Source: a virus
Strand: one strand, 5' to 3'
DNA length: 31,659 bases
IMG/VR virus record: IMGVR_UViG_3300037076_000157
Coordinates: 1 to 31,659 of that record
Positions 11,443 through 24,050 of this stretch are shown here, piece by piece. Both the position numbers and the translations under genes were made by a program. The notes beneath the pieces were generated by a model. That model was not told the origin of the DNA, made no database searches, and was given only the letters and a program-made list of their open reading frames with translations. Position 1 is the first letter of the stretch; every line of letters begins with the position of its first letter.

Positions 11443-11481
11443 ATCCTACCAAATCCAGGCTCGAATGTCAATAGATGTATC
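11443..11481 (-). promoter_or_regulatory. Early promoter with conserved upstream box, 6 nt from ATG 11436
   Basis: Minus strand: box GATACATCTA, TTGACA (11471-11466), 17-bp spacer, TAGGAT (11448-11443), six bases, ATG. One of five copies in this window sharing the box joined to the -35. Confidence 0.72.
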
Positions 11482-11645
11482 TACTTTTTTTCAGCGACCG
11501 GCGACCATTCTTCTTCGTTCGGTTCGGCACCGGCATCGGAGTTGGCACGGCAAGAATCGCAGACAATGAGGCCGCAATAACGACCGCTCTTTAGTTCACT
11601 AACTGGTTTGCTTTCTTCACAAACTTCACAGTTCAAGGTTTTCAT
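11481..11645 (-). CDS. Zinc-knuckle mini-protein (54 aa)
   Basis: 54 aa from ATG 11645 (MKTLNCEVCEES) to TAG 11481. C6/C9 and C24, C29 and C32 (YCGLIVCDSC) give a treble-clef-like zinc pattern, followed by an acidic tail. Two A/G-rich sites (AGAGG, AAAGG) precede the ATG, so this early unit has a true leader of about 14 nt. Its end overlaps the next promoter. Family unknown. Confidence 0.7.
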   Translation of the reverse strand: MKTLNCEVCEESKPVSELKSGRYCGLIVCDSCRANSDAGAEPNEEEWSPVAEKK

Positions 11646-11665
11646 ACCTTTTTACCTCTAGCCTA

Positions 11666-11705
11666 AGAATAGCACGCCAGTCAACAAAATGTCAATAGGT
11701 ACATC
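11666..11705 (-). promoter_or_regulatory. Early promoter with GATGTACCTA box upstream of 11645
   Basis: Minus strand: GATGTACCTA, TTGACA (11695-11690), 18-bp spacer, TATTCT (11671-11666), then 20 nt to ATG 11645 with a ribosome site in between. Confidence 0.68.
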
Positions 11706-11709
11706 AAGA

Positions 11710-12276
11710 TTATTCAGCAGTGGCTTCGATCAGGTTTTTGCGTGCTCTAGCCTCATAGAGCGTTCGGAAGCGTAGGGTGTAGTAAATGACCGGACGGCCT
11801 AGAAAACCCCGCAGAATGCCTCTACGGGCCGGGAAAAAGGTTTCTGACGGCACGTCTGGATACTCTTCCTTCACCCATCCCGTGCGTTCGGCAAAATTGT
11901 GTGCGGCCAGCGGACCCAGATCAATGTCGCACATGAACATTTCATCGTTTGTTTGAGGTAGGTACGATAGTTCTTGGCTGTGCTTCGTCACCAGAATTAG
12001 CCGGTGTACGATCCGGGCGAAAGTCTCTGGGTAGCCCAAAGAAAGAGCGGCTTCGTAGCCTTTGGTGGCAGAACGCTCTTCATCGTCTTTGTGATCCTGG
12101 TAGTAGTCGTGAAACCAAATTGCCAGCCGTAGCGCTTCTTCATTTTCGACCAGATCAATATTCTTGTTCATTTCATCGAACAGTTCGGTGATGTGGTTGA
12201 GATTGTGGTAGCGGCGTCCTGGCGCATTGTATGTGTAATACAAATCAATCGACATGTTCGTCCATGCGTGCTTCAT
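11710..12276 (-). CDS. HD-domain metal-dependent phosphohydrolase (COG4339-like)
   Basis: 188 aa. RRYHNLNHITELFDEM (first His), then AIWFHDYYQD (the HD pair), and later FMCDIDLGPLA (final Asp) match the predicted HD phosphohydrolases of the COG4339 type. The family probably hydrolyses a nucleotide or other phosphoester, with substrate unknown. It overlaps the preceding stop as ATGA, so it shares a message with the 93-aa gene. A nucleotide-pool role is an inference. Confidence 0.82.
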   Translation of the reverse strand: MKHAWTNMSIDLYYTYNAPGRRYHNLNHITELFDEMNKNIDLVENEEALRLAIWFHDYYQDHKDDEERSATKGYEAALSLGYPETFARIVHRLILVTKHSQELSYLPQTNDEMFMCDIDLGPLAAHNFAERTGWVKEEYPDVPSETFFPARRGILRGFLGRPVIYYTLRFRTLYEARARKNLIEATAE

Positions 12277-12554
12277 AGATCGGTTCCTGCTTCTTCTAAC
12301 ATTTTAGCACGCCGTGTTTCGTAGATCATGGCATCCGCATTATCGCAGAAAAAACAGTCGCCAGATTTGCAATTGCGTTCGTGAATGAATGCGGGAGAGC
12401 GGAGGGCGTGCTCGTAATCTACAAAGTCAATGATAGGCTTGTATGGAAGAGGAATAATCCTAGTGTCTGGTGGAGCCTTCGCAAGCAGAACTTTGATGTC
12501 GTACTCTAATGCGAGTTTCCGCAGTTCTTTTGCGGTGTCGTCTAGTGTTGGCAC
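12273..12554 (-). CDS. Hypothetical protein with Cys cluster, GTG start (93 aa)
   Basis: 93 aa; CKSGDCFFC (about residues 62-70) is a compact three-Cys motif. The N-terminal half is helical (TAKELRKLALEYDIKVLLA). It starts at GTG 12554 six bases after a TATACT box, so a leaderless GTG-initiated message is predicted. The gene is coupled to the HD hydrolase. Family unknown. Confidence 0.65.
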   Translation of the reverse strand: MPTLDDTAKELRKLALEYDIKVLLAKAPPDTRIIPLPYKPIIDFVDYEHALRSPAFIHERNCKSGDCFFCDNADAMIYETRRAKMLEEAGTDL

Positions 12555-12560
12555 GATACC

Positions 12561-12589
12561 AGTATACTACTTCACGTCGTCGGCGTCAC
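12561..12589 (-). promoter_or_regulatory. Promoter GTGACG-17-TATACT, 6 nt from GTG 12554
   Basis: Minus strand: GTGACG (12589-12584), 17-bp spacer, TATACT (12566-12561), six bases, GTG start. The -35 lies within the end of the upstream gene. Confidence 0.5.
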
Positions 12590-13013
12590 CTTTGGAATTG
12601 CATTTGTGACAGTGATAGCGTTCGCCAGCATCGTGGTAGCCGGTCTCAGATGATTGACCAAAATCGAATGGATGAAATGAAATATGCTTGGCACCGGCTC
12701 CGCAATCGGGGCAAGATGGACCTTTGCTCTTGGTTTTCTTGCCGGGACCAAGTGCAGCTTCCATCATAGTGTCAAGCTCTTTTTCGTACACACTCTTTAC
12801 GTGGACTTTGGGCTTTCTAGTAACTTCTTCCAAAATGTTTCTTGCGACGGCATCAGCATCAGACAATGCAACATCCAAGGAGCGTTCAAGCTCTTCTTCC
12901 ACAGCCGGGTCTTGCTTGTTAGCAACGGCCTGTGTCAGTTCTTCATCCAGGTGCAGAATCTCTTCTAGCAAGCTCTGTCCGAAGTATCTGGCGTATGATT
13001 TGTCGGATAACAT
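12567..13013 (-). CDS. Hypothetical protein with C-terminal zinc ribbon (148 aa)
   Basis: 148 aa starting MLSDKSYARYFGQSLLEE. The N-terminal 90 residues are acidic helix/coil. The C-terminus has CPDCGAGAKH and RYHCHKCNSKGD, a two-pair zinc ribbon. ATG 13013 is preferred over GTG 13028 because GAGGAAAG sits 5 nt before it. A CTAAATA box 19 nt upstream makes this a led late gene. Function unknown. Confidence 0.72.
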   Translation of the reverse strand: MLSDKSYARYFGQSLLEEILHLDEELTQAVANKQDPAVEEELERSLDVALSDADAVARNILEEVTRKPKVHVKSVYEKELDTMMEAALGPGKKTKSKGPSCPDCGAGAKHISFHPFDFGQSSETGYHDAGERYHCHKCNSKGDADDVK

Positions 13014-13032
13014 GATGTCTTTCCTCACTCAT

Positions 13033-13039
13033 TATTTAG
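13033..13039 (-). promoter_or_regulatory. Late-type box CTAAATA for the 13013 gene
   Basis: CTAAATA on the minus strand, with a leader containing GAGGAAAG before ATG 13013. It is divergent from the late box at 13071. Confidence 0.6.
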
Positions 13040-13070
13040 CTTTCATGCTGATATCACAACGACTTTGGTG

Positions 13071-13077
13071 ATAAATA
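13071..13077 (+). promoter_or_regulatory. Late-type box ATAAATA for the HNH gene
   Basis: ATAAATA followed by a 15-nt gap containing GAGGGAGAG and ATG 13093. A led late promoter for a homing endonuclease. Confidence 0.6.
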
Positions 13078-13092
13078 TGAGGGAGAGAATTT

Positions 13093-13662
13093 ATGTCCAA
13101 AACAACATATAACGGAAATCCTTGTCGAGTGTGCGGTGCCACTTTACGATATTATGCGGCAGGAAAATGTGTGGCGTGTCAACGACGGCACAAACAAGTG
13201 TATCGTCAATCCATTCGAGGAAAGCGAAAACAAGCTGAGTGGAGTAAGACGTATGCTCAATCAGAAAAAGGAAAACGAGCCAGAAAGATTCAGATTCACA
13301 GTACCGCACAAAAAAGAAAAGCCGCTTTGTACGCCCGATGGTATCGAACGACGGATAAAGGAAAAATGGTGAATCAAGTTGGGCAATCCAAATGTAAAGC
13401 TAAAAGACTTAAAGCTGAAGGCACGCATACAACAATTGAATGGATTGCCCTTAAAGAAATTTACCAACATCGGTGTCTGCGGTGTGGTAAGCATGAATCA
13501 AAACTTTCACAACCACTCCAAGAAGACCATGTTATCCCACTATCTAAAGGCGGTACTAATTGGATCACGAACATTCAACCGCTGTGTAAAGAATGCAACG
13601 GAATGGGCGGAAAAGGAGTTAGTGATATGGATTATCGCACAGTTTTCCGTCTCCATCTATAG
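13093..13662 (+). CDS. HNH homing-type endonuclease, paralogue of 722-1297
   Basis: 189 aa. N-terminal zinc motif (CRVCGATLRYY, CVAC), basic linker repeats (EWSKTYAQSEKGKRARK, RWYRTTDKGK), then the HNH domain with CLRC, LQEDHVIPLSKGG, NIQPLCKECN and a GMGGKG tail. It shares layout and motifs with the minus-strand HNH at 722 but has different linker repeats. It is flanked by minus-strand genes, is under its own late box, and its last codons overlap the next gene by 6 nt: a typical selfish insertion between genes. Confidence 0.9.
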   Translation: MSKTTYNGNPCRVCGATLRYYAAGKCVACQRRHKQVYRQSIRGKRKQAEWSKTYAQSEKGKRARKIQIHSTAQKRKAALYARWYRTTDKGKMVNQVGQSKCKAKRLKAEGTHTTIEWIALKEIYQHRCLRCGKHESKLSQPLQEDHVIPLSKGGTNWITNIQPLCKECNGMGGKGVSDMDYRTVFRLHL

Positions 13663-13923
13663 TTTGTACTTGTCAATGATCGTGAAGAGGGCGTCTTCAA
13701 CTTCTAACCAAATAGCGTCGGCTTGGACCTCAGTTGAGGCTTTCTGATATGTTTGTAGACGATCAGAAAAATGTTCCAGCCATGCTTTTTGTTCATCTAA
13801 TACATGTTGTTTCATTTGAAATTCCTTAGTAAAATCATGCTCTGCCCATGCTGCACAGTAAAGGTTCCACTTCTCGTGTCCAGCACGATCTCTACGACAT
13901 AAATAGCATTTTACAGACGGCAC
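13657..13923 (-). CDS. Hypothetical protein with N-terminal zinc motif, GTG start (88 aa)
   Basis: 88 aa, MPSVKCYLCRRDRAGHEKWNLYC at the N-terminus gives C6/C9, H and a later Cys for one zinc knuckle. The remainder is helical (FSDRLQTYQKASTEVQADAIWLEVEDALFTII). It starts at GTG 13923 inside the end of the preceding gene and converges on the HNH gene. Family unknown. Confidence 0.6.
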   Translation of the reverse strand: MPSVKCYLCRRDRAGHEKWNLYCAAWAEHDFTKEFQMKQHVLDEQKAWLEHFSDRLQTYQKASTEVQADAIWLEVEDALFTIIDKYKL

Positions 13924-14228
13924 AAGATTGACTTGAGACTGCGGTTGATGCTTTCGATCTTGCTTGCGGCCCTTCTTGCTTGCGATTCAAGGTTGATGAT
14001 GCCCGGTTCCTTTGACATGGAATCGTTCTTGGCTTCGCCTTCACCAAATAGCTTGCTGCGGAAGTCATCCACCAACTCAGCACTAGTGTTGAGTTCACCT
14101 AACAGCCGGTCCATCACTTGTGTGACTCGTTCCTTGTCTTCTGCAAGGTCCGACTCTTCCATTTTGTTGTATGCGGCTGGTGGGAACACAGTCGTCTTGC
14201 GGTGTGGTACGTCTTTTGCGTTTGCCAT
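13911..14228 (-). CDS. Hypothetical coiled-coil protein (105 aa)
   Basis: 105 aa; residues about 24-60 and 75-100 are strongly helical (SDLAEDKERVTQVMDRLLGEL, ESQARRAASKIESINRSL). AGGAAAA lies 6 nt before ATG 14228, and the preceding gene ends one base earlier. No family recognised. Confidence 0.65.
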   Translation of the reverse strand: MANAKDVPHRKTTVFPPAAYNKMEESDLAEDKERVTQVMDRLLGELNTSAELVDDFRSKLFGEGEAKNDSMSKEPGIINLESQARRAASKIESINRSLKSILCRL

Positions 14229-14229
14229 A

Positions 14230-14511
14230 TTATTTTCCTGGTGTCTTTTGTGCAGGTCTGTTGCGAGGCCATTTGTTGATTATGTCGAGCGGACGATCCC
14301 ATTCTGACGGGCAAGGAATGAGTGTCTTGTCATACTCTTTGCCTGTAGAATAGTCAGTTGCTTTCACAGTATCTTCAGAGTGGCCGGTGAAAGCGATGCC
14401 CCACGCTTCACGAAGTTCCTGCCATTCAGGATGTATGTCACAATACACACATTCATTTTTACGATGTAAAACTTTTGAGTCACAATGAGGAAATTGTTTT
14501 ATATGTTGCAT
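14230..14511 (-). CDS. Conserved phage hypothetical with zinc motif (93 aa)
   Basis: 93 aa with CVYCDIHPEWQELREAWGIA followed by FTG, and later LIPCPSEWDRPLDIINKWP. This combination recurs in small conserved proteins of tailed phages with no assigned role. The first 13 nt overlap the end of the HNH gene upstream, so the HNH gene appears inserted directly in front of it. Confidence 0.72.
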   Translation of the reverse strand: MQHIKQFPHCDSKVLHRKNECVYCDIHPEWQELREAWGIAFTGHSEDTVKATDYSTGKEYDKTLIPCPSEWDRPLDIINKWPRNRPAQKTPGK

Positions 14512-15050
14512 TCTTTTCGTTGTCCTGTTGCTATTGCTCTAAAGTGTGTTCGTGTAGAATGACAATTAGCGCACACAACATCACACTTGTTGATCTCTGT
14601 AGTGAGTTTTTGTAACGTGCCTTGTCCAACTAACTGTGAGACTGTTGGTCCGGTTCGACCATCAACATGATCGTATTCCATCTGAAACCATTTATACTCG
14701 ATGCCACAATCAGCACACGGCGTATTCTCTCTAACCCACCGACTGTACCAACGGCATTGTTCAACTCTTGCTCGTTGATGTGCCGCCAAATATTCCCGAT
14801 TTTGTGCCGCCCATTTTTTACCAAGTACCCAACGGCATTGTCCGCATTGCACTCCTGTAAATTCAGTACCACACTTAATACAAGTCTTTGTGTGGTCTAC
14901 CTGTTCTACAGATAGTTCTAGCTTCGACAGACACGCAGTGCATCCACCATTAGATGTAAATCTAGGAACAGTATGCCCATTGGGACATGTTTTGCCGGTA
15001 AAGTAATACTTGTTTCCGTTTTTCTTCGCTGTGCGCCTTTCACTGTACAT
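14499..15050 (-). CDS. HNH endonuclease with multiple zinc motifs (183 aa)
   Basis: 183 aa. Three Cys clusters (CPNGHTVPRF...CTAC; CIKCG with CGQC; CADCGIEYKW) precede the catalytic region FQMEYDHVDGRTG ... VSQLVGQGTLQKLTTEI ... CDVVCANCHSTRTH. This is the HNH layout with D-H-V-D-G and C-x-N-C-H. It differs from the 722/13093 pair and from the 4994/22761 pair, so it is a third HNH type in the window. It overlaps the start of the next gene. Confidence 0.88.
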   Translation of the reverse strand: MYSERRTAKKNGNKYYFTGKTCPNGHTVPRFTSNGGCTACLSKLELSVEQVDHTKTCIKCGTEFTGVQCGQCRWVLGKKWAAQNREYLAAHQRARVEQCRWYSRWVRENTPCADCGIEYKWFQMEYDHVDGRTGPTVSQLVGQGTLQKLTTEINKCDVVCANCHSTRTHFRAIATGQRKECNI

Positions 15051-15092
15051 GTAGATATGTATACATGAAGTAGTTTGGCATCACAGCGACCT

Positions 15093-15413
15093 TCATCTTC
15101 CTTCACGTTCCCAATACGAAGCCATGTGCATTTGTTCCAGCAAGCGTGCATAATCTTCCATGAGCATTAGTGTGTTTTCGGAAATTTCCGGGTCGATGTT
15201 GAGTGCGCCCATCTCTTGCAATGCTTCGTTAGCTTTTTGTAGCTCACTCATCGCATTAGCAAGAGCATTGTACTGAGACTTGGTTGCTTTGTAATGATAT
15301 TGGAATTCTTCTTCGGACATGCCGGTGAGATCAGTCTGCGCTTCTTTGAACGAATCACTCGTCTGAAAGTTCGCCTCACCACTGAAGATGTCGGGTTCGT
15401 TTGGGTTCCACAT
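15093..15413 (-). CDS. Hypothetical coiled-coil protein (106 aa)
   Basis: 106 aa starting MWNPNEPDIFSGEANF. From about residue 35 to 100 it is almost continuous helix (EFQYHYKATKSQYNALANAM, ELQKANEALQEM, MLMEDYARLLEQMHMA). It follows the frameshifted gene by two bases. No family recognised; possibly oligomeric. Confidence 0.65.
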   Translation of the reverse strand: MWNPNEPDIFSGEANFQTSDSFKEAQTDLTGMSEEEFQYHYKATKSQYNALANAMSELQKANEALQEMGALNIDPEISENTLMLMEDYARLLEQMHMASYWEREGR

Positions 15414-15415
15414 AG

Positions 15416-15624
15416 TTATTCTGGTTCTACAGCATAAGAGACTTGAGTATCAAGCTCATGCTTTCCGCACGTCCTGCAACGTCGGCGCTGGTCGATGTAT
15501 GTGCCAAGAGTATCGTCGGTCCAGGTATTGCTATTGTACCGAGTGATCTCGCCTTCTTTTACAATCTCCCATACATCCCAATCGTGGGTGTGCGGTGGGA
15601 TTGTGAATCTACTTCGTTTGCCAT
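15416..15624 (-). pseudogene. Zinc-motif protein gene frameshifted just after its start codon
   Basis: The frame ending at 15416 reads KRSRFTIPPHTHDWDVWEIV, then KEGEITRYN, a C-R-T-C-G-K-H zinc motif, and SYAVEPE. It has no ATG, GTG or TTG before the upstream stop. An ATG at 15624 sits 8 nt after AAAGGA but is out of phase; the distance (209 nt) is one base short of an open frame. Restoring one G after the ATG (ATGGGC instead of ATGGC) gives a continuous 69-aa protein. Either a real 1-nt deletion or an assembly error. Confidence 0.6.
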
Positions 15625-15750
15625 AGGAAATTTCCTTTCATCAAGATCTACATAGGTGCCATACCCGGAGCACTCGCCATACTCGATGCGGTCTTCATCT
15701 TCATCGTGGTCTTCAAACCGTTCAAGCAAATTGTAAAGCCATGCCCACAT
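15559..15750 (-). CDS. Hypothetical acidic protein (about 63 aa)
   Basis: Starts MWAWLYNLLERFEDHDEDED; the ATG overlaps the preceding stop as TAATG. The frame runs on into the start of the frameshifted gene downstream (the MANEVDSQ segment). The natural protein may be this long, or may have ended earlier if further indels exist here. Acidic and short; function unknown. Confidence 0.5.
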   Translation of the reverse strand: MWAWLYNLLERFEDHDEDEDRIEYGECSGYGTYVDLDERKFPMANEVDSQSHRTPTIGMYGRL

Positions 15751-16034
15751 TATTTTATCTCGGTTGCACCGCTGAGATTGGAATCCATCTCTAGGTCTCC
15801 ACGGTGTTCTTCCCCGTGGAAGTCACCATAAAGAACCCATCTTACGTAGACTTTATGTTCTGGTCCTGATTCGCCGCTGGAGTTGTGTACTTCACAAGGA
15901 TACCAGACAACATACTTATCGTGTGTGTCGCAGGTGCGTCCAACTTCAACTCATCCTGGCAAATCCATCACTCGATTCAGTACACGCTTGAAGCCAGCTT
16001 CGCCCCATGCAACATTTTGTTCTACGTTTGTCAT
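15750..16034 (-). pseudogene. Hypothetical gene interrupted by an in-frame TGA
   Basis: From ATG 16034 (AAAGGAATAGC upstream, coupled to the AAA+ gene stop) the frame reads MTNVEQNVAWGEAGFKRVL, NRVMDLPG, then TGA at 15953-15951. It then continues in the same frame as VEVGRTCDTHDKYVVWYPCE and on to ATEIK and TAA at 15752. The distal part has no ATG, GTG or TTG until near its end, so it cannot start independently. Total 94 codons with the TGA as codon 28. A CGA-to-TGA change would explain it. TGA is a normal stop elsewhere in the window, so global recoding is excluded. Confidence 0.6.
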
Positions 16035-16035
16035 G

Positions 16036-17151
16036 CTATTCCTTTGGACGCCACCCACTAATTTTCTCTAACCGCTCAAGGAATCTTTCTTCTTGTGGCG
16101 TTCTGATGCGTGCTTCCTTGCTAGGAGCTTCGTCATCGCTGAATCCGGCGCTGCCCTTACGGAAGCCATCAACAAACTTCGGCTTGTCCGTCATGCTCTT
16201 CAGCCGCTTCAATGTGACCTTGTATTCCTGATCCAAGCAGTAGCAAGCCGCTACCAATTCACGCAAGTGAGCGATGCTGAAGTTTTCAGTATCAGAGACC
16301 CACTTATCCAGTTCTTCGTTTTGTAGATCCGGCGCAGCAAACTTCAAGTATGTTCTACGTGCAGTCTCAGACGGCATACCAACGAAGATACGTTCGTCAA
16401 AGCGAGAAGGCCGGTTCACAATACGTGCGCCCAATCTCTCAGGATAGTTAGTAGTTGCAAGATACACGACATTAGCGATTTGATTTTCGCCGTCCAACAT
16501 AGAGAGGATGGAGTGTTCTCCATGCTTCTCAATGATTTCGTCAATATCTTCCAGAACAACAATGATGGGCCTATTCGGTTCCATCTGGCGAATGCGTTGC
16601 AACATGTGTGCTAAGAATTCCGGGTGGCCGCACAACAGAACGATACCTTCCAGGCTGATGAGTTCCTTCATCAGCAAGTTAATCGTCACGCTTTTACCAG
16701 ATCCGGGCGGTCCCCAGAGCAATACGCCACGTTTATATACGAAGCCAAACTTTTCGTAGCGATCCTTACGAGTCCAAAACTTTTTCATGCCACCCAATAC
16801 GTGAGTATTCGCAGTGTCAGGTAGTTCAACGATGTTGTCGCTGATTACATTCTGAAGCTGTAGGTAGAGACCGGCGTCATCTTGCTCGATCTTGTATACG
16901 CCGGAAGGCAGGTTCGCAACAGTCCTGGCAGCGGCTCGATACTTTCCATTCGGGCCAACTTGCCATTGCGAATAGTCCATATCCGTTTCGGTTTTGGAAC
17001 TTATCTTCGTGTTTGGCACTTCTGATTCGTCTCCGTCTTCGTCGTCAAAATAATCGTCTCGCATGGTTGTTTGTGTCGATGTCGATGGTGGTCCTGCTAT
17101 TGCGTCTGGCCGGTCAGACCTGAAACCCATGTTGGTGTTTTTCATTGACAT
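16036..17151 (-). CDS. AAA+ ATPase (FtsH/CDC48/BCS1-type module)
   Basis: 371 aa from ATG 17151. A disordered acidic N-terminus (DDYFDDEDGDESE) is followed by a beta-rich segment and the AAA core: GVLLWGPPGSGKS (Walker A, about 147-154), IIVVLEDIDEI (Walker B), ATTNYPERL (sensor 1) and NRPSRFDERIF (arginine-finger region). A helical lid and a Lys/Arg-rich tail end in GWRPKE. Single-domain AAA+ proteins of this type occur in large phages with unresolved roles, such as remodelling of protein complexes. It shares a divergent promoter region with the 206-aa gene. ATG 17145 and 17130 are alternative starts. Confidence 0.85.
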   Translation of the reverse strand: MSMKNTNMGFRSDRPDAIAGPPSTSTQTTMRDDYFDDEDGDESEVPNTKISSKTETDMDYSQWQVGPNGKYRAAARTVANLPSGVYKIEQDDAGLYLQLQNVISDNIVELPDTANTHVLGGMKKFWTRKDRYEKFGFVYKRGVLLWGPPGSGKSVTINLLMKELISLEGIVLLCGHPEFLAHMLQRIRQMEPNRPIIVVLEDIDEIIEKHGEHSILSMLDGENQIANVVYLATTNYPERLGARIVNRPSRFDERIFVGMPSETARRTYLKFAAPDLQNEELDKWVSDTENFSIAHLRELVAACYCLDQEYKVTLKRLKSMTDKPKFVDGFRKGSAGFSDDEAPSKEARIRTPQEERFLERLEKISGWRPKE

Positions 17152-17155
17152 TACC

Positions 17156-17183
17156 AGAGTACCGCACTTTTTGAATCTGTCAA
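17156..17183 (-). promoter_or_regulatory. Candidate promoter TTGACA-16-TACTCT for the AAA+ gene
   Basis: Perfect TTGACA (17183-17178) on the minus strand, 16-bp spacer, weak TACTCT (17161-17156), four bases before ATG 17151. Its -35 lies within the spacer of the opposing plus-strand promoter. Confidence 0.4.
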
Positions 17184-17198: not shown

Positions 17199-17203
17199 GA
17201 AGC

Positions 17204-18076: not shown

Positions 18077-18090
18077 AGTTGTCTCTTCCT

Positions 18091-18365
18091 TTAACCTGGA
18101 CCCATGCTGTTAGTTAAGTGCATGGATTTTGACGACTCACCATACTTCGTATACCAGCGAGAGGAAACTGTCCCGCCGTCAGGATGCGATTGAAGCCAAT
18201 GCACCTTTGGTCCATAAATTTTCACATCGCCGTGGACCGGGCACTGGATGTGAATGTGCTGCCCTGGCTGAATGACGATGTAGAGTATTCAAGCTCTCCC
18301 CAAATCTGCCGGATGAAGATGGCCCGTACTTCTTCTTCGGTGTACTGTCGTGGTTTTTCACTCAT
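18091..18365 (-). pseudogene. Hypothetical gene with a 1-nt deletion
   Basis: ATG 18365 overlaps the previous stop (ATGA) and opens SEKPRQYTEEEVRAIFIRQI then WGELE. That frame soon becomes nonsense, while another frame reads LYIVIQPGQHIHIQCPVHGD then VKIYGPKVHWLQSHPDGG to TAA 18093, with no start codon. The span of 275 nt is one base short. Adding one A in the GAATA segment (giving GAAATA) restores an open frame of 91 aa. Confidence 0.58.
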
Positions 18366-18661
18366 GGTATGATCTCGTAGCGCACCAGCCCGACTCGCAC
18401 TAGTTCAAACAATGCGGCCAAAATTTCGTCGGTGGTGTGAGACTTATCAGCATGATACAGATCTTCGTATGAACACACATTGTCCATCAACTTGAGGAAG
18501 GTCGTACCCTTCATACTGTCGAGCATGTGTCCCACGAAGCCGCCAGCATGGATCTGCGATTGCCAGATGGCTTCCTGTTCTGGTGATAGGGTTTTCGGCC
18601 AAGGTTTTGGTTCGCCGGTCCCGTCTGGAAGAAATTCATGCGTGTTGCGATAGAACAACAT
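18362..18661 (-). CDS. Hypothetical protein (99 aa)
   Basis: 99 aa starting MLFYRNTHEFLPDG. The body is helical (LSPEQEAIWQSQIHAGGFVG, DEILAALFELVRVGLV), with one Cys. A strong sigma70 promoter lies just upstream. The stop is coupled to the next gene. Family unknown. Confidence 0.7.
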   Translation of the reverse strand: MLFYRNTHEFLPDGTGEPKPWPKTLSPEQEAIWQSQIHAGGFVGHMLDSMKGTTFLKLMDNVCSYEDLYHADKSHTTDEILAALFELVRVGLVRYEIIP

Positions 18662-18676
18662 TTTCGTGCTGTGTCC

Positions 18677-18705
18677 ATTATCCCACGAAGCAGGGAAACT
18701 GTCAA
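18677..18705 (-). promoter_or_regulatory. Strong sigma70 promoter TTGACA-17-GATAAT
   Basis: Perfect TTGACA (18705-18700), 17-bp spacer, GATAAT (18682-18677), 15 nt before ATG 18661. Divergent from the late box that serves gp53. Confidence 0.75.
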
Positions 18706-18713
18706 ACCGCCGC

Positions 18714-18720
18714 CTAAATA
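18714..18720 (+). promoter_or_regulatory. Late-type box CTAAATA, 5 nt from GTG 18726
   Basis: CTAAATA directly upstream of the gp53 start codon: a structural gene with the T4-late-like element, as expected for this class. Confidence 0.65.
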
Positions 18721-18725
18721 GGAAT

Positions 18726-19277
18726 GTGCCAATTCCATATTTCCAAAAAATTCCCGTGATCGGCTACGATATCGACGGCTCCGGGGAAAAGATCCTGGCG
18801 GTTGATATTTTGCAGCGCATCAAAATTCGTGATGTCCTGCTCAACAACTACCTGATTTTTTATACGTATACCGTCAAAGATGGCGAGACGCCGGAAATCA
18901 TCGCAGAAAAGCTGTATGGTAATGTATTGTACCACTGGATTGTGCTGTTGGCAAACAACATTGTGGACCCTGTGTACGATTGGCCGATGAGTCAAGAGAA
19001 CCTACTCAACACCATTCACTCTCGATATGACCAACCACAAGTGGACGGCTTGGTGTATGCTTACCAAACCATTGACCACTATGAAGATAGTCACGGAAAT
19101 ACTATTGACGAAGAGACCTATAAGTCATTGCCGGTTTCGATGCGAAAAATTGTCATGATATACGACCAAATGATTGCAGACAATGAAGCAAAGCGTCAAA
19201 TCAGACTTTTGGACCCTAAGTTTGTAAGTCAAGTGGATGTTGAGGCCGACAGTTTGATGAAGCGGGCGTTAGTGTAA
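18726..19277 (+). CDS. 53: Baseplate wedge protein gp53
   Basis: 183 aa. From GTG 18726 it reads MPIPYFQKIPVIGYDIDG, then NNYLIFYTYTVKDGETPEII, then AEKLYGNVLYHWIVLLANNI, VDPVYDWPMSQ. This is the T4 gp53 family (LysM-like start Y-x-V-x-D-G-E-T-P-E-x-I-A-x-x-x-Y-G, then Y-H-W-I-V-L-x-A-N-N), a wedge component of the contractile-tail baseplate. The GTG is preferred because the family starts here, although an upstream GTG at 18666 is in frame. It lies outside the usual tail-gene cluster, with early genes on the opposite strand around it. Confidence 0.92.
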   Translation: MPIPYFQKIPVIGYDIDGSGEKILAVDILQRIKIRDVLLNNYLIFYTYTVKDGETPEIIAEKLYGNVLYHWIVLLANNIVDPVYDWPMSQENLLNTIHSRYDQPQVDGLVYAYQTIDHYEDSHGNTIDEETYKSLPVSMRKIVMIYDQMIADNEAKRQIRLLDPKFVSQVDVEADSLMKRALV

Positions 19278-19294
19278 ATATCATTACAACCTTT

Positions 19295-19612
19295 ATGGGT
19301 ACTCGCATGGTCCCGGCATCCTTGGGCGCACCGGAGACTACAGAACAAATTGCCCACACCCCAATCGAAGAAGTTTTAAGGATCGCAGGAAAGAACTGCA
19401 CAGAACCATTTTGCAGCACATTCGGACCTGTCCCTGGACCCGGCTCTAAACCTGCCTTTGCTGCGCTTGTGCTGGCCTACAACACATCGGGCGGCTTGGA
19501 TGCGGCCTGGATGTCAGAACCCATATTCGATTCGTCTGAGGCGGCACAAGACTACGCAGAAGACGTATGTGGACCTGAGATCTGGTCTATTCTTGGTGGA
19601 TGTGAGTGGTAG
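19295..19612 (+). CDS. Hypothetical protein (105 aa)
   Basis: 105 aa, MGTRMVPASLGAPETTEQIA. Four Cys (NCTEPFC, VCGPE, GGCEW) and a Gly/Pro-rich centre (FGPVPGPGSKP). A GTAAATA sequence overlapping the gp53 stop could serve as a weak late box. No ribosome site is evident. Family unknown; its tail overlaps the opposite-strand zinc protein by 26 nt. Confidence 0.6.
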   Translation: MGTRMVPASLGAPETTEQIAHTPIEEVLRIAGKNCTEPFCSTFGPVPGPGSKPAFAALVLAYNTSGGLDAAWMSEPIFDSSEAAQDYAEDVCGPEIWSILGGCEW

Positions 19613-19838
19613 GCACTGCCTCAGTCATCGAATGACCTATGTGACAGTAGTAACAAAAAGGACAGCGATACGGATCTAAGATCTCACCCGGCGACTTCAC
19701 TTCCAAATTGTATGCTGCTTTCGTAGCAAGCACCATGTTGGCGTACCGAATCTTTGAGCCACATGCCCGTTCTTCACCAGATGCAAGTGCAAGTGCCCGG
19801 TCGTCTTCAAATTTTTTGATGATGACTGGTGGGTACAT
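19587..19838 (-). CDS. Phage zinc-motif protein (83 aa)
   Basis: 83 aa. The end carries PYRCPFCYYCHIGH, a compact C-x-x-C-x-x-C-H zinc motif seen in many small phage proteins. Before it there is a conserved-looking KIRYANMVLATKAAYNL helix. It overlaps the membrane protein gene upstream by 32 nt. Role unknown. Confidence 0.7.
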   Translation of the reverse strand: MYPPVIIKKFEDDRALALASGEERACGSKIRYANMVLATKAAYNLEVKSPGEILDPYRCPFCYYCHIGHSMTEAVPTTHIHQE

Positions 19839-20052
19839 TTCGTCCAGTTCTTTCTTTGAAGTCCTGGAGTAGTCTTGTCACATTGCGTTTGCGGCGTGAT
19901 ATTTTCAACTGGACAACATCGTCTTGCTTGCACTTCGCATCGGCTCCACAGTTCCGGCAATGGTCTTGTTGGTCGGCTCTACCTTTGCAGTAGATGACCC
20001 AACCGGCCAGCAGGAGTGCCACTAGTGCGAGGATGTTCCCAATGATTACCAT
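19807..20052 (-). CDS. Small membrane protein with Cys motif (81 aa)
   Basis: 81 aa from ATG 20052, which overlaps the preceding stop. MVIIGNILALVALLLAGWVI (1-20) is a transmembrane helix, followed by CKGRADQQDHCRNCG and C-K-Q-D, and a basic C-terminal tail (KISRRKRNVTRLLQDFKERTG). A type I or signal-anchor topology is likely. The longer in-frame start would overlap more coding sequence and lacks support. Confidence 0.65.
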   Translation of the reverse strand: MVIIGNILALVALLLAGWVIYCKGRADQQDHCRNCGADAKCKQDDVVQLKISRRKRNVTRLLQDFKERTGRNVPTSHHQKI

Positions 20053-20231
20053 GATCGGAGTGTAACATCCTTTCCACAGTGAGCGCAGATGATCCATTCA
20101 CGGCCATCCGGTCCACCTGATATGTCGGTGCCACTGTACAGTTGTACGTCATTTGGAACGTATTCCAACGTGGCTCCACACTTGCGACAGATGCACTGTT
20201 TGAGAACTTCCGGCGATGGTTCGACCTTCAC
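20046..20231 (-). CDS. Zinc-ribbon protein (about 61 aa)
   Basis: The recognisable protein begins KVEPSPEVLKQCICRKCGAT then LEYVPNDVQLYSG and ends CAHCGKDVTLRSW. CICRKC and CAHC form a zinc ribbon, and the K-V-E-P-S-P-x-V-x-K ... G-x-T-L-E-Y-V-P pattern is common in phage mini-proteins. No ATG fits; GTG 20231 is 24 nt after the previous stop and matches the family start. The longer frame to 20306 overlaps 52 nt of the upstream gene. Confidence 0.68.
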   Translation of the reverse strand: MKVEPSPEVLKQCICRKCGATLEYVPNDVQLYSGTDISGGPDGREWIICAHCGKDVTLRSW

Positions 20232-20254
20232 TACTCTGACTGCTATTTTGCCTC

Positions 20255-20641
20255 TTATTTCGTTTTCTGTACTAGCTTCGTGACCGAGCGACCACATTGC
20301 GGACAACCCACATGGTCAGTCCACGGTGCCCACGAATCCATTGTAGCATCGTAGTGGCAGTGAGGGCAAACTACCTTGCCTTTTTCGTTGGGATTAAGCT
20401 CCAAAACGAAGCGAGGCTTGTTGTCTTCCGGTCGGTTCTCTTGTACCAAGACGAACCCGAAGACGCTCAAGTAAAGCTCGTTCTGGCGTGGTGGGCGGAA
20501 TGCCGAAATTTTCAGGAAGGATGGTAAAGCGACGTGCTTGCTGTTGTAGGAATGCTTGCCACGGCAACCACAAGCGCAGCCGTGTTTGCCGGAATAGACG
20601 CTCATGACCTGATCGGTAGTAACGGAGAGGATGTTCTTCAT
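20255..20641 (-). CDS. Cys-rich protein, possible fusion (128 aa)
   Basis: 128 aa. The N-terminus, MKNILSVTTDQVMSVYSG then KHGCACGCRGKHSY, resembles a stand-alone phage family with the G-C-A-C-G-C-R-G-K-H motif. The second half (VVCPHCHYDATMDSWAPW, GCPQCGRSVTKLV) is a separate two-knuckle zinc ribbon. It heads an early operon (20641 to 19587) behind a GATGTACCTA-type promoter and is predicted leaderless: the -10 lies 7 nt before the ATG. Confidence 0.72.
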   Translation of the reverse strand: MKNILSVTTDQVMSVYSGKHGCACGCRGKHSYNSKHVALPSFLKISAFRPPRQNELYLSVFGFVLVQENRPEDNKPRFVLELNPNEKGKVVCPHCHYDATMDSWAPWTDHVGCPQCGRSVTKLVQKTK

Positions 20642-20648
20642 ACCTTAA

Positions 20649-20688
20649 ATCCTACCACAGACCCGGCTCAAATGTCAATAGGTACATC
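20649..20688 (-). promoter_or_regulatory. Early promoter with GATGTACCTA box, 7 nt from ATG 20641
   Basis: Minus strand: GATGTACCTA, TTGACA (20678-20673), 18-bp spacer, TAGGAT (20654-20649), seven bases, ATG. Confidence 0.72.
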
Positions 20689-20693
20689 AAAAT

Positions 20694-20801
20694 TTATGGT
20701 GTGAACAGAAGCCACATGATGACGTAGGCGACATTTAACACAACGCCAACCACCAGCCAAAACAGGAAAACTCCCACCACGAATTTGATGAGAGTTTTCA
20801 T
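20694..20801 (-). CDS. Single-pass membrane peptide (35 aa)
   Basis: 35 aa from ATG 20801 (ATGA overlap with the preceding stop) to TAA 20694. MKTLIKF is followed by about 25 hydrophobic residues (VVGVFLFWLVVGVVLNVAYV and onward), i.e. one transmembrane helix with a short positive N-terminus. Possible inner-membrane modulator; function unknown. Confidence 0.6.
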   Translation of the reverse strand: MKTLIKFVVGVFLFWLVVGVVLNVAYVIMWLLFTP

Positions 20802-21040
20802 AGCTTGCGGCGACGGCCTTGCTTTTTGTTGGCGAGTTTCAACGCCTTACGTTCGGCCCGGAGCTTGTCGGCTTCCGCTTGGGCGGCTCGTTGATAGGCG
20901 GCTTCGATGTCCATCTGGAACACTTTACGCTGCCCTTTCAGACGAAAACCCAACCACGTAGGATGGATCGTTACCGCAATCTCCCGGCCCCTATACATGC
21001 TGTACGAGAGGCGTGTGGTGGGCTTATCAGCTTTGGTCAA
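20798..21040 (-). CDS. Hypothetical basic protein, TTG start (80 aa)
   Basis: 80 aa. RLSYSMYRGREIAVTIHPTW then LGFRLKGQRKVFQMDIEAAY is a beta sheet followed by a long Lys/Arg/Ala-rich helix (KLRAERKALKLANKKQGRRR). Similar small proteins recur in large phages. TTG 21040 has AGGA 6 nt upstream. Probably nucleic-acid binding on charge alone. Confidence 0.65.
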   Translation of the reverse strand: MTKADKPTTRLSYSMYRGREIAVTIHPTWLGFRLKGQRKVFQMDIEAAYQRAAQAEADKLRAERKALKLANKKQGRRRKL

Positions 21041-21055
21041 ATCGTTCCTGCTTTC

Positions 21056-21277
21056 TTATCGCACCTTTACTAGATCACGCTGAACTGCACTTGCCTGACT
21101 CAACATTTCCGGGATCGAACCCACAAAAATAAATGTCATGTCCGGGTTGTTGGCAAACGACACCTGAATTTCATTGAGGGTGTCGAGTACCGTCTTTCCA
21201 TACGTGACGGCCATGAATTGCAATACCTTCTTGGCCTTTTCTTCTTCATAGTTGTCAAACTTGACTGCTCTTACCAT
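21056..21277 (-). CDS. Hypothetical protein (73 aa)
   Basis: 73 aa starting MVRAVKFDNYEEEKAKKVLQF, alpha/beta (TFIFVGSIPEML). AAGGTG lies about 9 nt before the ATG and is partly paired in a hairpin with the end of the preceding gene. Family unknown. Confidence 0.65.
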   Translation of the reverse strand: MVRAVKFDNYEEEKAKKVLQFMAVTYGKTVLDTLNEIQVSFANNPDMTFIFVGSIPEMLSQASAVQRDLVKVR

Positions 21278-21287
21278 TGTGTTTTCA

Positions 21288-21312
21288 CCTTAGTGGCGTT
21301 TTCGCCTAAAGG
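21288..21312 (-). promoter_or_regulatory. Intergenic hairpin covering the ribosome site of 21277
   Basis: On the minus strand CCTT..GGCG-AAAA-CGCC..AAGG folds on itself. The 5' side contains the TAG stop of the upstream gene and the 3' side contains the AAGG ribosome site of the next gene. This is the geometry of a translational-coupling hairpin. Confidence 0.45.
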
Positions 21313-21665
21313 TATATACACAACGAGGAAACTTGGAACCCGGCTGGTAGACCGTAGACCCAATCAACTCCGTTGAAAATCGTGAGAGCAACGTCCATCG
21401 AAGGCACGTCTTGTTCGTACCCGGTATCGTCGGCTCCCCAAATACTCACACGCCACAAAGAACTTTTCTTGTCGATGGCGGTATCCGGCCCGTACAACTG
21501 AGTTACAGCGACCCTGGCGTAACCACCTTCGCCACGCTCTAACCCAAGCTCACGATACGTCTTGCCGTCTGATGTGGCGAATGACGGAGCTAAGTCGATT
21601 TCGCATGGCACAAACTTGACATGCCTGCAAATACTGTTGTCGGTGGCTTTCTTAGGCTTACTCAT
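21306..21665 (-). CDS. Hypothetical protein (119 aa)
   Basis: 119 aa, MSKPKKATDNSICRHVKFVP. Mixed beta content (YARVAVTQLYG, SSLWRVSIWGADDTGYEQD). Its start overlaps the end of the next upstream gene by 8 nt. No family recognised; part of the coupled early operon from 22671. Confidence 0.65.
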   Translation of the reverse strand: MSKPKKATDNSICRHVKFVPCEIDLAPSFATSDGKTYRELGLERGEGGYARVAVTQLYGPDTAIDKKSSLWRVSIWGADDTGYEQDVPSMDVALTIFNGVDWVYGLPAGFQVSSLCIYL

Positions 21666-21864
21666 TGTTGGTGTCCAGGAGCATCACAGCGTATTCCAAA
21701 GCGGCGAGGTAGCCGTTCAATTGGGCGATGCGGGATTTGATTTCTGAGACACGATGAAAGTCCACTAGAGAGCAATCAATCTTGTCGATGATTTTTTGTT
21801 CGGCTCTCGCTTCGTCACGCTGACAGCGGATCTCATCCATCTTGGCGGTCAGTTTGAATCTCAT
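21658..21864 (-). CDS. Hypothetical coiled-coil protein (68 aa)
   Basis: 68 aa. Nearly all helix: MDEIRCQRDEARAEQKIIDK, then RVSEIKSRIAQLNGYLAALE. The Y-L-A-A-L-E-Y segment resembles the GYIAALEFTL segment of the 22282-22671 product, so the two may be distant paralogues. Sits between two coupled genes. Confidence 0.62.
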   Translation of the reverse strand: MRFKLTAKMDEIRCQRDEARAEQKIIDKIDCSLVDFHRVSEIKSRIAQLNGYLAALEYAVMLLDTNNE

Positions 21865-21868
21865 GTTA

Positions 21869-22063
21869 TTAGTTTGCCTCGATTGGCATGACGCCTTCGA
21901 GAGTCTGAAGAACCAGACCGCCGCCCGGATTTTGCCACACCCAACCTTTTGCAGTGGTGTTGAGCAGCGTGAAACCCAAAGACCGCAGTGATTTCGTCAT
22001 TGCATGAAATGCAGCAGCGGGTAACAAAACGGTGTCTTTTTGGAGCGGTGTATTTGCAAGCAT
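21869..22063 (-). CDS. Hypothetical protein (64 aa)
   Basis: 64 aa from ATG 22063 (MLANTPLQKDTVLLPAAAFH), ending MPIEAN. Alpha/beta with FTLLNTTAKGWVWQNPGGGL. ATG 22063 is preferred over GTG 22078 because the latter lies upstream of the predicted transcription start. The -10 is five bases before the ATG, so the message is predicted leaderless. Confidence 0.65.
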   Translation of the reverse strand: MLANTPLQKDTVLLPAAAFHAMTKSLRSLGFTLLNTTAKGWVWQNPGGGLVLQTLEGVMPIEAN

Positions 22064-22068
22064 GTCTA

Positions 22069-22108
22069 ATACTAGCACACTCGGACCCGGAATGTCAATA
22101 GGTACATC
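22069..22108 (-). promoter_or_regulatory. Early promoter with GATGTACCTA box, 5 nt from ATG 22063
   Basis: Minus strand: GATGTACCTA, TTGACA (22098-22093), 18-bp spacer, TAGTAT (22074-22069), five bases, ATG. It overlaps the stop of the upstream gene. Confidence 0.72.
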
Positions 22109-22280
22109 TATTTTTCAGCAGAGCGATTTCTTCCAGTAGAGCGGCGATTTTTCCAACCAGCGACGGCCCGGATCGTGTGCCAAGGATTTTGCGGGCTTCG
22201 ACGGCATACTCTTCTGGAATGTCTCTCCAAGTGCCGCCACCTTGCAATCCGGTTGGTCCTTCGGTGTCCAGATACCACAT
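22095..22280 (-). CDS. Hypothetical protein (61 aa)
   Basis: 61 aa from ATG 22280 (MWYLDTEGPTGLQGGGTWRD), one base after the upstream stop. C-terminal helix VGKIAALLEEIALLKN. A start at 22343 would overlap 62 nt of the preceding gene and is less likely. The TGA stop lies within the TTGACA of the next promoter. Family unknown. Confidence 0.6.
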   Translation of the reverse strand: MWYLDTEGPTGLQGGGTWRDIPEEYAVEARKILGTRSGPSLVGKIAALLEEIALLKNRCTY

Positions 22281-22281
22281 G

Positions 22282-22671
22282 TTACGCCGTCCAACGGGCA
22301 GCAGGGCGGGGGTGAGCGGCGGCGTGCTGTTTACGGTACTCATCCTCTACGGCATCGTTGGCGGGCTTCATATGGGCATTGGTACAACCACCAACATTGA
22401 GGAAGCATCCGCCTTCGACCAGCGTCTTGCGACATTCGTCCAGGCTGTGAATCAGTTCCGGCTGTGTGTTGCAGTTTTCTTCCAAGGTGAATTCCAAAGC
22501 GGCAATGTAGCCACCGGCACGAGCGTGCTGTTCACGGAGATCGCATACCGTGTCCATGCTCACAAGCATGGCCGGAATCAGTCTGCTCAACTCTTCCATT
22601 CGAGCATTGATCTCAGCGTACTTCTTCCGCCACTCAGCCAGCCTTGCTTCGATTGCTGCTTTGTCTCTCAT
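22282..22671 (-). CDS. Hypothetical coiled-coil protein (129 aa)
   Basis: 129 aa. Helical N-terminal half (AAIEARLAEWRKKYAEINAR, MEELSRLIPAM) followed by RAGGYIAALEFTL, and a Cys-containing middle (CNTQPELIH, DECRKTLVEGGCFL). It heads the early operon running to 20694 and is predicted leaderless: TAAGAT lies 7 nt before the ATG. Family unknown. Confidence 0.68.
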   Translation of the reverse strand: MRDKAAIEARLAEWRKKYAEINARMEELSRLIPAMLVSMDTVCDLREQHARAGGYIAALEFTLEENCNTQPELIHSLDECRKTLVEGGCFLNVGGCTNAHMKPANDAVEDEYRKQHAAAHPRPAARWTA

Positions 22672-22678
22672 ATTTTTA

Positions 22679-22708
22679 ATCTTACAACAGATGCATCTAC
22701 TTTGTCAA
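22679..22708 (-). promoter_or_regulatory. Early promoter TTGACA-18-TAAGAT, 7 nt from ATG 22671
   Basis: Perfect TTGACA (22708-22703), 18-bp spacer, TAAGAT (22684-22679), seven bases (TAAAAAT), ATG. The GATGTACCTA box is not conserved at this copy. Confidence 0.65.
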
Positions 22709-22728
22709 GCGGTAAGGGTAAAAATTTT

Positions 22729-22735
22729 CTAAATA
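22729..22735 (+). promoter_or_regulatory. Late-type box CTAAATA for the HNH-like gene at 22761
   Basis: CTAAATA with a 25-nt gap to the ATG; GAAAGG and GGAAG sites lie in the leader. Divergent from the early promoter at 22679. Confidence 0.58.
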
Positions 22736-22760
22736 CTTCAGTGAAAGGTACACGGAAGTC

Positions 22761-23261
22761 ATGAACAGAAAGAAAACAAAAGATTTGTCTATACACACCA
22801 AACGAGATCGAGGAATTCCACTAACAGCAGAAGAAATGGAACAATGGAAAATGTGGAGTCGTGATTGGTCGAAACACAGCCACACAACCACGAACGGTAG
22901 GGCCGGTGTGCTATGCCGGTCTGCCAAAAGAACTGCAAAAAATTTAGGTATGGGGTTCGACTTGACCAAGGACTGGATTAGAAAAAAACTGGAAACTGGT
23001 CGTTGTGAAGTCACTGATTTGCCATTTGATTTGTCGAACCGCAACAAAAACATAAAAGGAGCAGGCAACGTTCAAAAATATGCACCTTCTCTTGATCGAA
23101 AAGACCCATTAAAGGGATACACAAAAGACAATGTTCAACTTGTTGTTTGGATGTACAACGTGGGCAAACAAACCTATACACACGAGGATTTGGTTGAGTT
23201 TGCCCACGCTCTAATAGCAGCGGAACTACAGGTTGAACATAGTTCCAAGCAGTTGGGATGA
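22761..23261 (+). CDS. HNH-like homing endonuclease, paralogue of 4994-5524
   Basis: 166 aa. Basic N-terminus, then GRAGVLCRSAKRTAKNLG, RCEVTDLPFDLS, APSLDRKDPLKGYTKDNVQL followed by VVWMYN. This is the same series of motifs (C-E-V-T, P-S-L-D, GY-T-x-D-N-x-Q) as the gene upstream of IF-3. It is AT- and Lys-rich compared with the DUF932 gene it converges on, overlapping that gene's 3' end by 36 nt. Single insertion on the strand opposite its neighbours and under a late box. Confidence 0.78.
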   Translation: MNRKKTKDLSIHTKRDRGIPLTAEEMEQWKMWSRDWSKHSHTTTNGRAGVLCRSAKRTAKNLGMGFDLTKDWIRKKLETGRCEVTDLPFDLSNRNKNIKGAGNVQKYAPSLDRKDPLKGYTKDNVQLVVWMYNVGKQTYTHEDLVEFAHALIAAELQVEHSSKQLG

Positions 23262-23987
23262 CTCCAACAGCAGATGAGGCTTCGCAGCGTATTCCGTGCG
23301 AAAAACCTCAGTGTAGCTGTTATGAAGGCTCCACATTGTGCGAGGCTCGAACTCCTTGTGCGGCGGCTCGAAATACATCTGGCCGACCTTCGGCAGAAAC
23401 GCCTGGGGAATCACGCCCTTGACCACGGCATCGTAGATGTTGGCCTTGGCATCGGTGTCGCTGATGAACTGCTGCTTCAACAGGTCGATGTTGACACCGA
23501 AAGAGCCAAACCGGGCGATAGCCTTGCTGAGACCGTTGTCCACAGCGGTACGGAGGGTGTACTTGTCCAGGCCCGAAGTGTGCTTGCGCCACAAGAGATC
23601 GGCTTCACCGCAGAGCGCCATGTTGTCGCAGACGAATACACGGCAACCGGCTACCAGTTCGATAGCCATGCTCTTGTCGTTGGCGGCACGCAGCCCCAAG
23701 GCAAAGGCAAAGTCGTCGCAGGTTTGATGCTTCAGAACGAGAGTGGCGAAGAGCTTGGCTCCAACGAGCGCCTTGCCATCCAGCTTGCCATCCTGGACTG
23801 CAAATTCGCTGTTCATGATGCCGAAACCCCGGTGGGTGAGGTTCTTTTCAACGAGGTCGATCAGGTTGCTGTGAGCAACGGGCATAAAAGAAACGGTGCG
23901 AGGCGGCGTCGGAATGTGGATGAGGTCGCCACGGGAAATTTTGACTGCCCCACTGTGGGCGCAGAGAGTTGCGGTTGCGGTTGACAT
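23226..23987 (-). CDS. DUF932 protein (phage/plasmid-like)
   Basis: 253 aa. IHIPTPPRTVSFMPVAHSNL, then YAVQ-like SEFAVQDGKLDGKALVGAKL, then LGLRAANDKSMAIELVAGCR, VFVCDNMAL follow the DUF932 layout (central R-x-S-x-D-K-x-x-A ... G-x-x-V-x-V-C-x-N-x). The family is widespread on phages and plasmids; its activity is unknown. Strong early promoter, 18-bp spacer, with a true leader and GGAAGGAAG ribosome site. Its codon usage is more GC-rich than that of the overlapping HNH-like gene. Confidence 0.85.
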   Translation of the reverse strand: MSTATATLCAHSGAVKISRGDLIHIPTPPRTVSFMPVAHSNLIDLVEKNLTHRGFGIMNSEFAVQDGKLDGKALVGAKLFATLVLKHQTCDDFAFALGLRAANDKSMAIELVAGCRVFVCDNMALCGEADLLWRKHTSGLDKYTLRTAVDNGLSKAIARFGSFGVNIDLLKQQFISDTDAKANIYDAVVKGVIPQAFLPKVGQMYFEPPHKEFEPRTMWSLHNSYTEVFRTEYAAKPHLLLESSQLLGTMFNL

Positions 23988-24013
23988 TGTGTGTCTTCCT
24001 TCCTTTCAAAACC

Positions 24014-24050
24014 AGCATAGCAGATCAGCTTTTAAAATGTCAATAGGCAC
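24014..24050 (-). promoter_or_regulatory. Early promoter TTGACA-18-TATGCT upstream of DUF932
   Basis: Minus strand: GTGCCTA, TTGACA (24043-24038), 18-bp spacer, TATGCT (24019-24014), and about 20 nt of leader with GGAAGGAAG before ATG 23987. The upstream box is partly conserved. Confidence 0.68.

What the first reader, a model, noticed from the sequence alone, without database searches (positions are those of the whole stretch)
11443..24050. Early promoter family with a conserved box attached to the -35
Five minus-strand promoters (11436, 11645, 20641, 22063, 23987) share a near-identical run in which GATGTACCTA or a variant is joined directly to TTGACATT, with 17-18 bp to the -10. The run contains TGT-N8-ACA symmetry, and conservation beyond the sigma70 hexamers suggests an operator or a contact for a modified polymerase. 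Searching for this string should define the early regulon.
Basis: seen in the sequence. Interest (0 to 1): 0.58.

Follow-up and report, generated by a model that had tools for sequence, protein, structure and literature searches.

The report
Palindromic operator at leaderless phage promoters
A group of uncultured T4-like phages carries a short palindromic DNA switch on its strong promoters, most of which seem to start the message right at the first codon of the gene; the switch looks like the docking site of an unidentified repressor that could turn these genes off together.

Summary
In detail: five minus-strand promoters share a run joined to TTGACATT with 17-18 bp to an extended -10. The reading needs changing. 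The conserved unit is a 12-bp near-palindrome, TAGRTRYAYCTA, not TGT-N8-ACA. Four of the five carry it, the fifth only a half-site, and a sixth promoter (22708) carries it between -35 and -10. In 16 related uncultured phage contigs the box sits just upstream of -35, inside the spacer, or over the start, and it changes form and position between orthologous promoters. Of 75 box-blind promoters that did not recruit the contigs, 18 carry it; permuted motifs average 0.25. A movable site argues for a repressor operator and against a polymerase contact. The -10 lies exactly 6 nt from ATG in 29 of 60 boxed promoters (random 0.7%), so the transcripts are predicted to be leaderless. The phages are T4-like; eight named T4-like relatives show neither feature. 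The repressor gene, host and expression timing remain unknown. If right, it offers a testable answer, in one T4-like lineage, to how early promoters are shut off.

The parts
11472..11483 (-). operator box, 0 mismatches to TAGRTRYAYCTA, just upstream of the -35
11443..11471 (-). promoter: TTGACA, 17 bp, TGGTAGGAT; ATG at 11436 after 6 nt (predicted leaderless); gene 11119-11436 (DUF2958)
11696..11707 (-). operator box, 1 mismatch, just upstream of the -35
11666..11695 (-). promoter: TTGACA, 18 bp, TGCTATTCT; ATG at 11645 after 20 nt (leadered); gene 11481-11645 (54 aa)
20679..20690 (-). operator box, 1 mismatch, just upstream of the -35
20649..20678 (-). promoter: TTGACA, 18 bp, TGGTAGGAT; ATG at 20641 after 7 nt; gene 20255-20641
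22099..22110 (-). operator box, 0 mismatches, just upstream of the -35
22069..22098 (-). promoter: TTGACA, 18 bp, TGCTAGTAT; ATG at 22063 after 5 nt; gene 21869-22063
22679..22708 (-). promoter: TTGACA, 18 bp, TTGTAAGAT (not a TGN extended -10); ATG at 22671 after 7 nt; gene 22282-22671
24044..24055 (-). degenerate site, 4 mismatches to the box, proximal half CCTA only
24014..24043 (-). promoter: TTGACA, 18 bp, TGCTATGCT; ATG at 23987 after 26 nt with a ribosome site (leadered); gene 23226-23987

Best explanation
The shared run is two things side by side: a strong sigma70-type promoter (TTGACA, 17-18 bp, usually TGN-TANNNT) and a separate 12-bp near-palindromic operator, TAGRTRYAYCTA. The operator is most likely bound by a dimeric repressor. 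Binding next to the -35, in the spacer, or over the start would block sigma70 polymerase, so these promoters can fire on entry and be shut off together once the repressor accumulates. Many of these promoters place the predicted start point on the A of the ATG, so their messages would be leaderless. SHOWN from sequence: the box, its registers, its enrichment, its presence across a family of phage contigs, and the -10 to ATG geometry. INFERRED: binding by a protein, repression, early timing, leaderless start points, and that the repressor is phage-encoded.
For: Register is variable: among 107 promoters picked without regard to the box, it starts at -12 in 29, +9 in 8, +7 in 5, singly elsewhere; backward control 0. 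Independent of recruitment: 18 of 75 promoters against a mean of 0.25 for 179 permuted palindromes. 19 exact boxes against 0.2 expected in 13 contigs, 16 of 19 within 20 bp of TTGAC, the other three also at a likely promoter or start. RTRYAYCTATTGAC: 28 matches in 11 of 16 contigs, 0 backward. Two boxes can flank one -35 (G001 63041/63062). Orthologous promoters keep a box while its form or position changes. The -10 to ATG distance is exactly 6 in 29 of 60 boxed promoters; random 0.7%; over 813 genes extended -10s peak at 6-7 nt.
Against: No repressor gene was identified. Dyad positions do not covary: 121 complementary pairs against 132 expected upstream, 62 against 65 in the spacer, so the site is an imperfect palindrome. 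18 of 68 boxes with at most 1 mismatch have no TTGAC within 20 bp. One boxed TTGAC in family contig G006 (L228) has no extended -10 at 17-18 bp. Leaderless geometry also occurs in 8 of 47 unboxed promoters at exactly 6 nt, so it is not specific to the box. Nothing is known of timing.
Confidence: 0.68

Rival explanations
1. The box is an activator site: a phage or host protein bound beside the -35 (class II) or in the spacer (MerR-like) stimulates these promoters.
For: The commonest register (-12; 29 promoters) abuts the -35, as class II activator sites do (recalled). Spacer sites of 18 bp spacers resemble MerR-type sites (recalled; those have longer spacers).
Against: The promoters already have near-consensus -35 and extended -10, which activator-dependent promoters usually lack. 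One protein would have to activate from -12, +4, +7, +9 and from between -10 and ATG.
Confidence: 0.12
2. The box is bound by a host regulator, and the phages have placed their genes under it to sense the host state.
For: No phage gene for the binder was identified; the box is shared by phages with little else in common by sequence.
Against: A scan of genome contigs (84,980 species) for ACATCTATTGAC plus extended -10 plus ATG gave 3 matches, all lacking the left half of the box, as chance would give. Only one pattern was tried and the host may not be in that set.
Confidence: 0.12
3. The box is an extended promoter element contacted by a modified or phage-supplemented polymerase, as the first reader also suggested.
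For: Near-fixed register in the window (five of six promoters) and in the commonest class. T4 early promoters also have extra conserved bases (PMC2988021 passages).
Against: Spacer and start registers, two boxes at one promoter, and shifts between orthologous promoters.
Confidence: 0.05

Closest known systems
T4 early promoters (sigma70, UP/-35/TGn/-10)
   Same: T4-like phages; strong -35, TGN, -10; A-rich stretch just upstream (PMC2988021 and PMC1524935 passages)
   Different: A palindromic box with movable position, and -10 about 6 nt from ATG. Eight named T4-like relatives lack both.
T4 middle promoters (MotA box)
   Same: A phage-specific word joined to a sigma70 -10
   Different: The MotA box TGCTT replaces the -35 at -30; here the -35 is intact and the box is elsewhere.
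Cluster A mycobacteriophage operators/stoperators (L5)
   Same: Many dispersed sites for one repressor in one genome; some overlap an early promoter (PMC6550527 passages)
   Different: Those are asymmetric, mostly not at promoters, and in one orientation; here the site is a near-palindrome and mostly at promoters.
Operators of temperate phages (lambda, P22 type)
   Same: Palindromic sites overlapping -35/-10 of strong early promoters (recalled)
   Different: Scattered single-gene promoters across T4-like contigs; no repressor or integration locus identified here.
Leaderless genes
   Same: The -10 lies about 6 nt before the start codon, leaving no room for a ribosome site
   Different: Here many promoters of one phage lineage share this geometry, many of them together with a common operator.

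Membership tests
sigma70 early promoters of T4-like phages | near-consensus -35, TGN and -10 with 17-18 bp spacing | tested here: met
sigma70 early promoters of T4-like phages | carried by T4-type phages with separate TATAAATA late promoters | tested here: met
   T4-type genes; TATAAATA 20 against 4 (G001) and 18 against 6 (G002), but 1 against 1 in the window
sigma70 early promoters of T4-like phages | active immediately after infection | not testable with these tools
   no expression data
T4 middle (MotA) promoters | TGCTT box centred at -30 in place of a -35 | tested here: not met
   TTGACA is intact in all six window promoters
L5-type stoperators | asymmetric site, one orientation, mostly away from promoters | tested here: not met
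   near-palindrome in both forms; 16 of 19 exact boxes within 20 bp of TTGAC
repressor operators | palindromic site overlapping polymerase contacts, in more than one register | tested here: met
   symmetry imperfect
repressor operators | a cognate DNA-binding repressor | tested here: inconclusive
   no convincing gene; leads only
leaderless genes | start point at the start codon | tested here: inconclusive
   -10 to ATG geometry met for 4 of 6 window promoters at 5-7 nt and 29 of 60 boxed promoters at exactly 6; start points not mapped

The most novel reading that the evidence does not exclude
A two-layer switch in a T4-like lineage. A dimeric repressor closes all boxed promoters at once and, because many of their messages are leaderless, a phage-made IF-3 (window 4471-5004, 55% identical to one in G015) then biases ribosomes away from the remaining leaderless messages and towards Shine-Dalgarno-led messages: one operator and one translation factor together enforce early shut-off.
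Probability: 0.1. Interest if true: 0.82.

Novelty: new variant of a known kind. Interest (0 to 1): 0.6.

Why it matters
How T4-like phages stop their early promoters is open even for T4: neither loss of modA nor of asiA prevents the rapid decline (PMC2988021, passages). A shared operator on such promoters in a T4-like lineage would make the question testable with one DNA element. The combination with predicted leaderless starts would also make these phages a compact system for studying how leaderless and leadered messages compete during infection.

Tried and rejected
TGT-N8-ACA as the dyad: rejected, since it needs -35 bases and fails in two of the five copies. Polymerase contact: disfavoured by the movable register.

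Repressor hunt: Pfam scans of 148, 130, 130, 74, 38 and 22 predicted proteins (the sets overlap, and only the first 25 families were shown) and PHROGs for 74 (25 of 40 families shown) gave no convincing DNA-binding regulator. A MazE/AbrB-type protein (2 of 17 records), WYL_2 (G001, G005, G007) and one resolvase-type HTH match in G001 (protein not traced) are only leads. Viral scans with the first two found no further relatives. A cross-clade profile comparison returned mostly homing endonucleases and other proteins with no sign of a regulator. Host: not found; the genome scan gave 3 chance-like matches.

Contig choice: the three box scans returned 20, 42 and 62 stretches (some contigs recur). 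I kept 16 contigs by reading for the promoter-plus-ATG layout or repeated boxes. The rest were dropped as chance or as an unrelated conserved sequence; some dropped single hits could be real, and G007 is a weak member. Counts leave out the near-duplicate contigs G011-G014; counts include them. Control: the bare 18-mer TWGATACATCTATTGACW hit 58 stretches; of 46 new loci, 0 have an extended -10 at 17-18 bp, and most are one conserved coding stretch. So the box plus TTGAC without a -10 is not diagnostic.

Literature: searches for the box strings (46 papers hold one of them, 20 listed, none seen to be about a phage promoter) and for T4-like early promoters with repressor, operator and palindrome (0 papers) found no description; some searches were on leaderless genes, IF3 and phage promoters. 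Only listings, and passages of four papers, were read; no full paper.

Full report
WHAT WAS CHECKED. The window is a whole virus record of 31,659 bases, with no completeness estimate and possibly a fragment. All five have TTGACA, 17 bp (11471) or 18 bp (11695, 20678, 22098, 24043), and an extended TGN-TANNNT. A search of the window for CTATTGACATT gave six minus-strand matches: these five, plus 5231-5241, which is not among the promoters; the backward control gave 0.

THE BOX IS SEPARATE FROM THE PROMOTER. An exact scan of the viral collection returned one other contig (G001, 166,602 bases), where the 18-mer again forms a promoter with 18 bp to TATTCT and ATG 6 nt further on. Reading the promoters of G001 and the window showed the same word in another place: at window 22708 and at G001 18717, 107199 and 160444 it lies inside the spacer. 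At G001 63041/63062 two boxes flank one -35, 21 bp apart; at G001 107166/107208 they serve two divergent promoters.

FAMILY. Three pattern scans returned 20, 42 and 62 stretches. I kept 16 contigs by layout. RTRYAYCTATTGAC has 28 matches in 11 of these 16, and 0 backward. They form related groups by shared proteins. T4-type genes are present: gp53 in the window, several in G001 and G002, and a late-transcription coactivator family in one of G006, G015 or the window. The window shares mainly endonuclease-like genes and a HAD-like gene (names recalled) with G001 and G005, and IF-3 with G015. The T4 late motif TATAAATA is enriched in G001 (20 against 4) and G002 (18 against 6), one Markov sample each; in the window it is 1 against 1.

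STATISTICS. Of 107 promoters picked without regard to the box, boxes with at most 1 mismatch start at -12 in 29, +9 in 8 and +7 in 5; the backward control gives 0. Because contigs were recruited by boxed patterns, I removed every promoter that a pattern could have matched, the window, and the near-duplicate contigs G011-G014: 18 of the remaining 75 still carry a box (seven at -12, five at +7, six elsewhere). 179 permuted palindromes average 0.25; the largest (13, 9, 6, 5) are permutations that remain close to the motif. Genome-wide in 13 contigs there are 19 exact boxes against 0.2 expected, and 49 with one mismatch against 8.6; 16 and 34 of them lie within 20 bp of TTGAC. Of the three exact boxes without TTGAC, one has TTGCGT in the place of the -35, one lies between -10 and ATG, and one abuts an ATG (my reading).

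AGAINST SIMPLE SYMMETRY. Dyad partners do not covary: 121 complementary pairs against 132 expected in 30 upstream boxes, and 62 against 65 in 14 spacer boxes. Typical sites are TAGATACATCTA, TTGATACATCTA and TAGATGTACCTA: one half is usually TAGATG or its complement, the other degenerate. Orthologous promoters show the box swapping form (G001 54302 TAGATGTACCTA, G005 10520 TAGATACATCTA; protein identity 0.67) and moving (+7 in G001 18717, +4 in G010 19356; protein identity 0.42).

LEADERLESS GEOMETRY. With a standard sigma70 layout (recalled), six bases between the -10 and ATG put the start point on the A. The distance is exactly 6 in 29 of 60 boxed promoters (27 of 54 if the duplicate contigs are removed from the list) and in 8 of 47 unboxed ones; random places give 0.7%. 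Over 813 predicted genes, extended -10s peak at 6 nt (41), 7 (24) and 5 (10), with 8 or fewer at any other distance. In the window, four of six promoters have 5-7 nt (11471: 6; 22098: 5; 20678: 7; 22708: 7); 11695 has 20 nt, and 24043 has 26 nt with a ribosome site. So leaderless geometry is a habit of these phages and not exclusive to boxed genes.

NAMED RELATIVES. By one tail protein the best match of the window among annotated phages is about 26% identical. Eight T4-like or related myophages (OC, DLP_6, ACP17, BUCT-ZZ01, Melnitz-1, V45v66, Marzo, Vibrio 1.244.A) have 0 boxed promoters and 0 matches to a strict leaderless promoter pattern. The same strict pattern (18 bp, TTGACA only) finds 10 matches in 4 of the 5 family contigs tried; G015 gave none.

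MECHANISM. A palindromic site at several registers around one strong promoter type is best read as a repressor operator. T4 itself shuts off early promoters by means not yet known (PMC2988021, passages), so a repressor would be a new solution in this superfamily as far as my limited searches show. The binder is unidentified; see Tried and rejected. The IF-3 link is speculative: IF3 in excess inhibits translation of some leaderless messages (PMC9031893, passages), but IF-3 was found in only 2 of 17 family records, which may be fragments.

VERDICT. Observation confirmed in part and extended. The operator interpretation is supported, the dyad is corrected, and polymerase contact is disfavoured. 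Timing, binder and host are open.

Noticed in passing
window 4471-5004 (-): A full-length translation initiation factor IF-3 (both Pfam domains); a 55% identical copy lies in G015, none in the other 15 family records or the 8 named relatives.
   Followed up: partly
window 26584-27705 (-): A ClpB/ClpA-type AAA+ ATPase (D2-like part only, 373 aa).
   Followed up: no
G002 record, L141:11552-12067 and others: G002 encodes several translation-linked genes: peptide deformylase (itself behind a boxed promoter), a PTH2 peptidyl-tRNA hydrolase and an RF-1 domain protein.
   Followed up: no
L161:758-970, L144:5707-5928 and near-copies: A short GTG-start protein behind a spacer-boxed promoter in several contigs looks like YidD (recalled, not tested).
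   Followed up: no
L014:8805-9185 (G001): A homologue of Tad4, an inhibitor of type I Thoeris defence.
   Followed up: no
L191-L236: The bare 18-mer TWGATACATCTATTGACW recurs in many unrelated viral contigs as one conserved coding stretch without a promoter; a warning for motif scans.
   Followed up: partly
window 722-1306, 13093-13662, 22761-23261, 24086-24724: Genes with several relatives in the related contigs; they look like homing endonucleases (HNH and GIY-YIG, recalled for the window copies) interspersed in the window.
   Followed up: no
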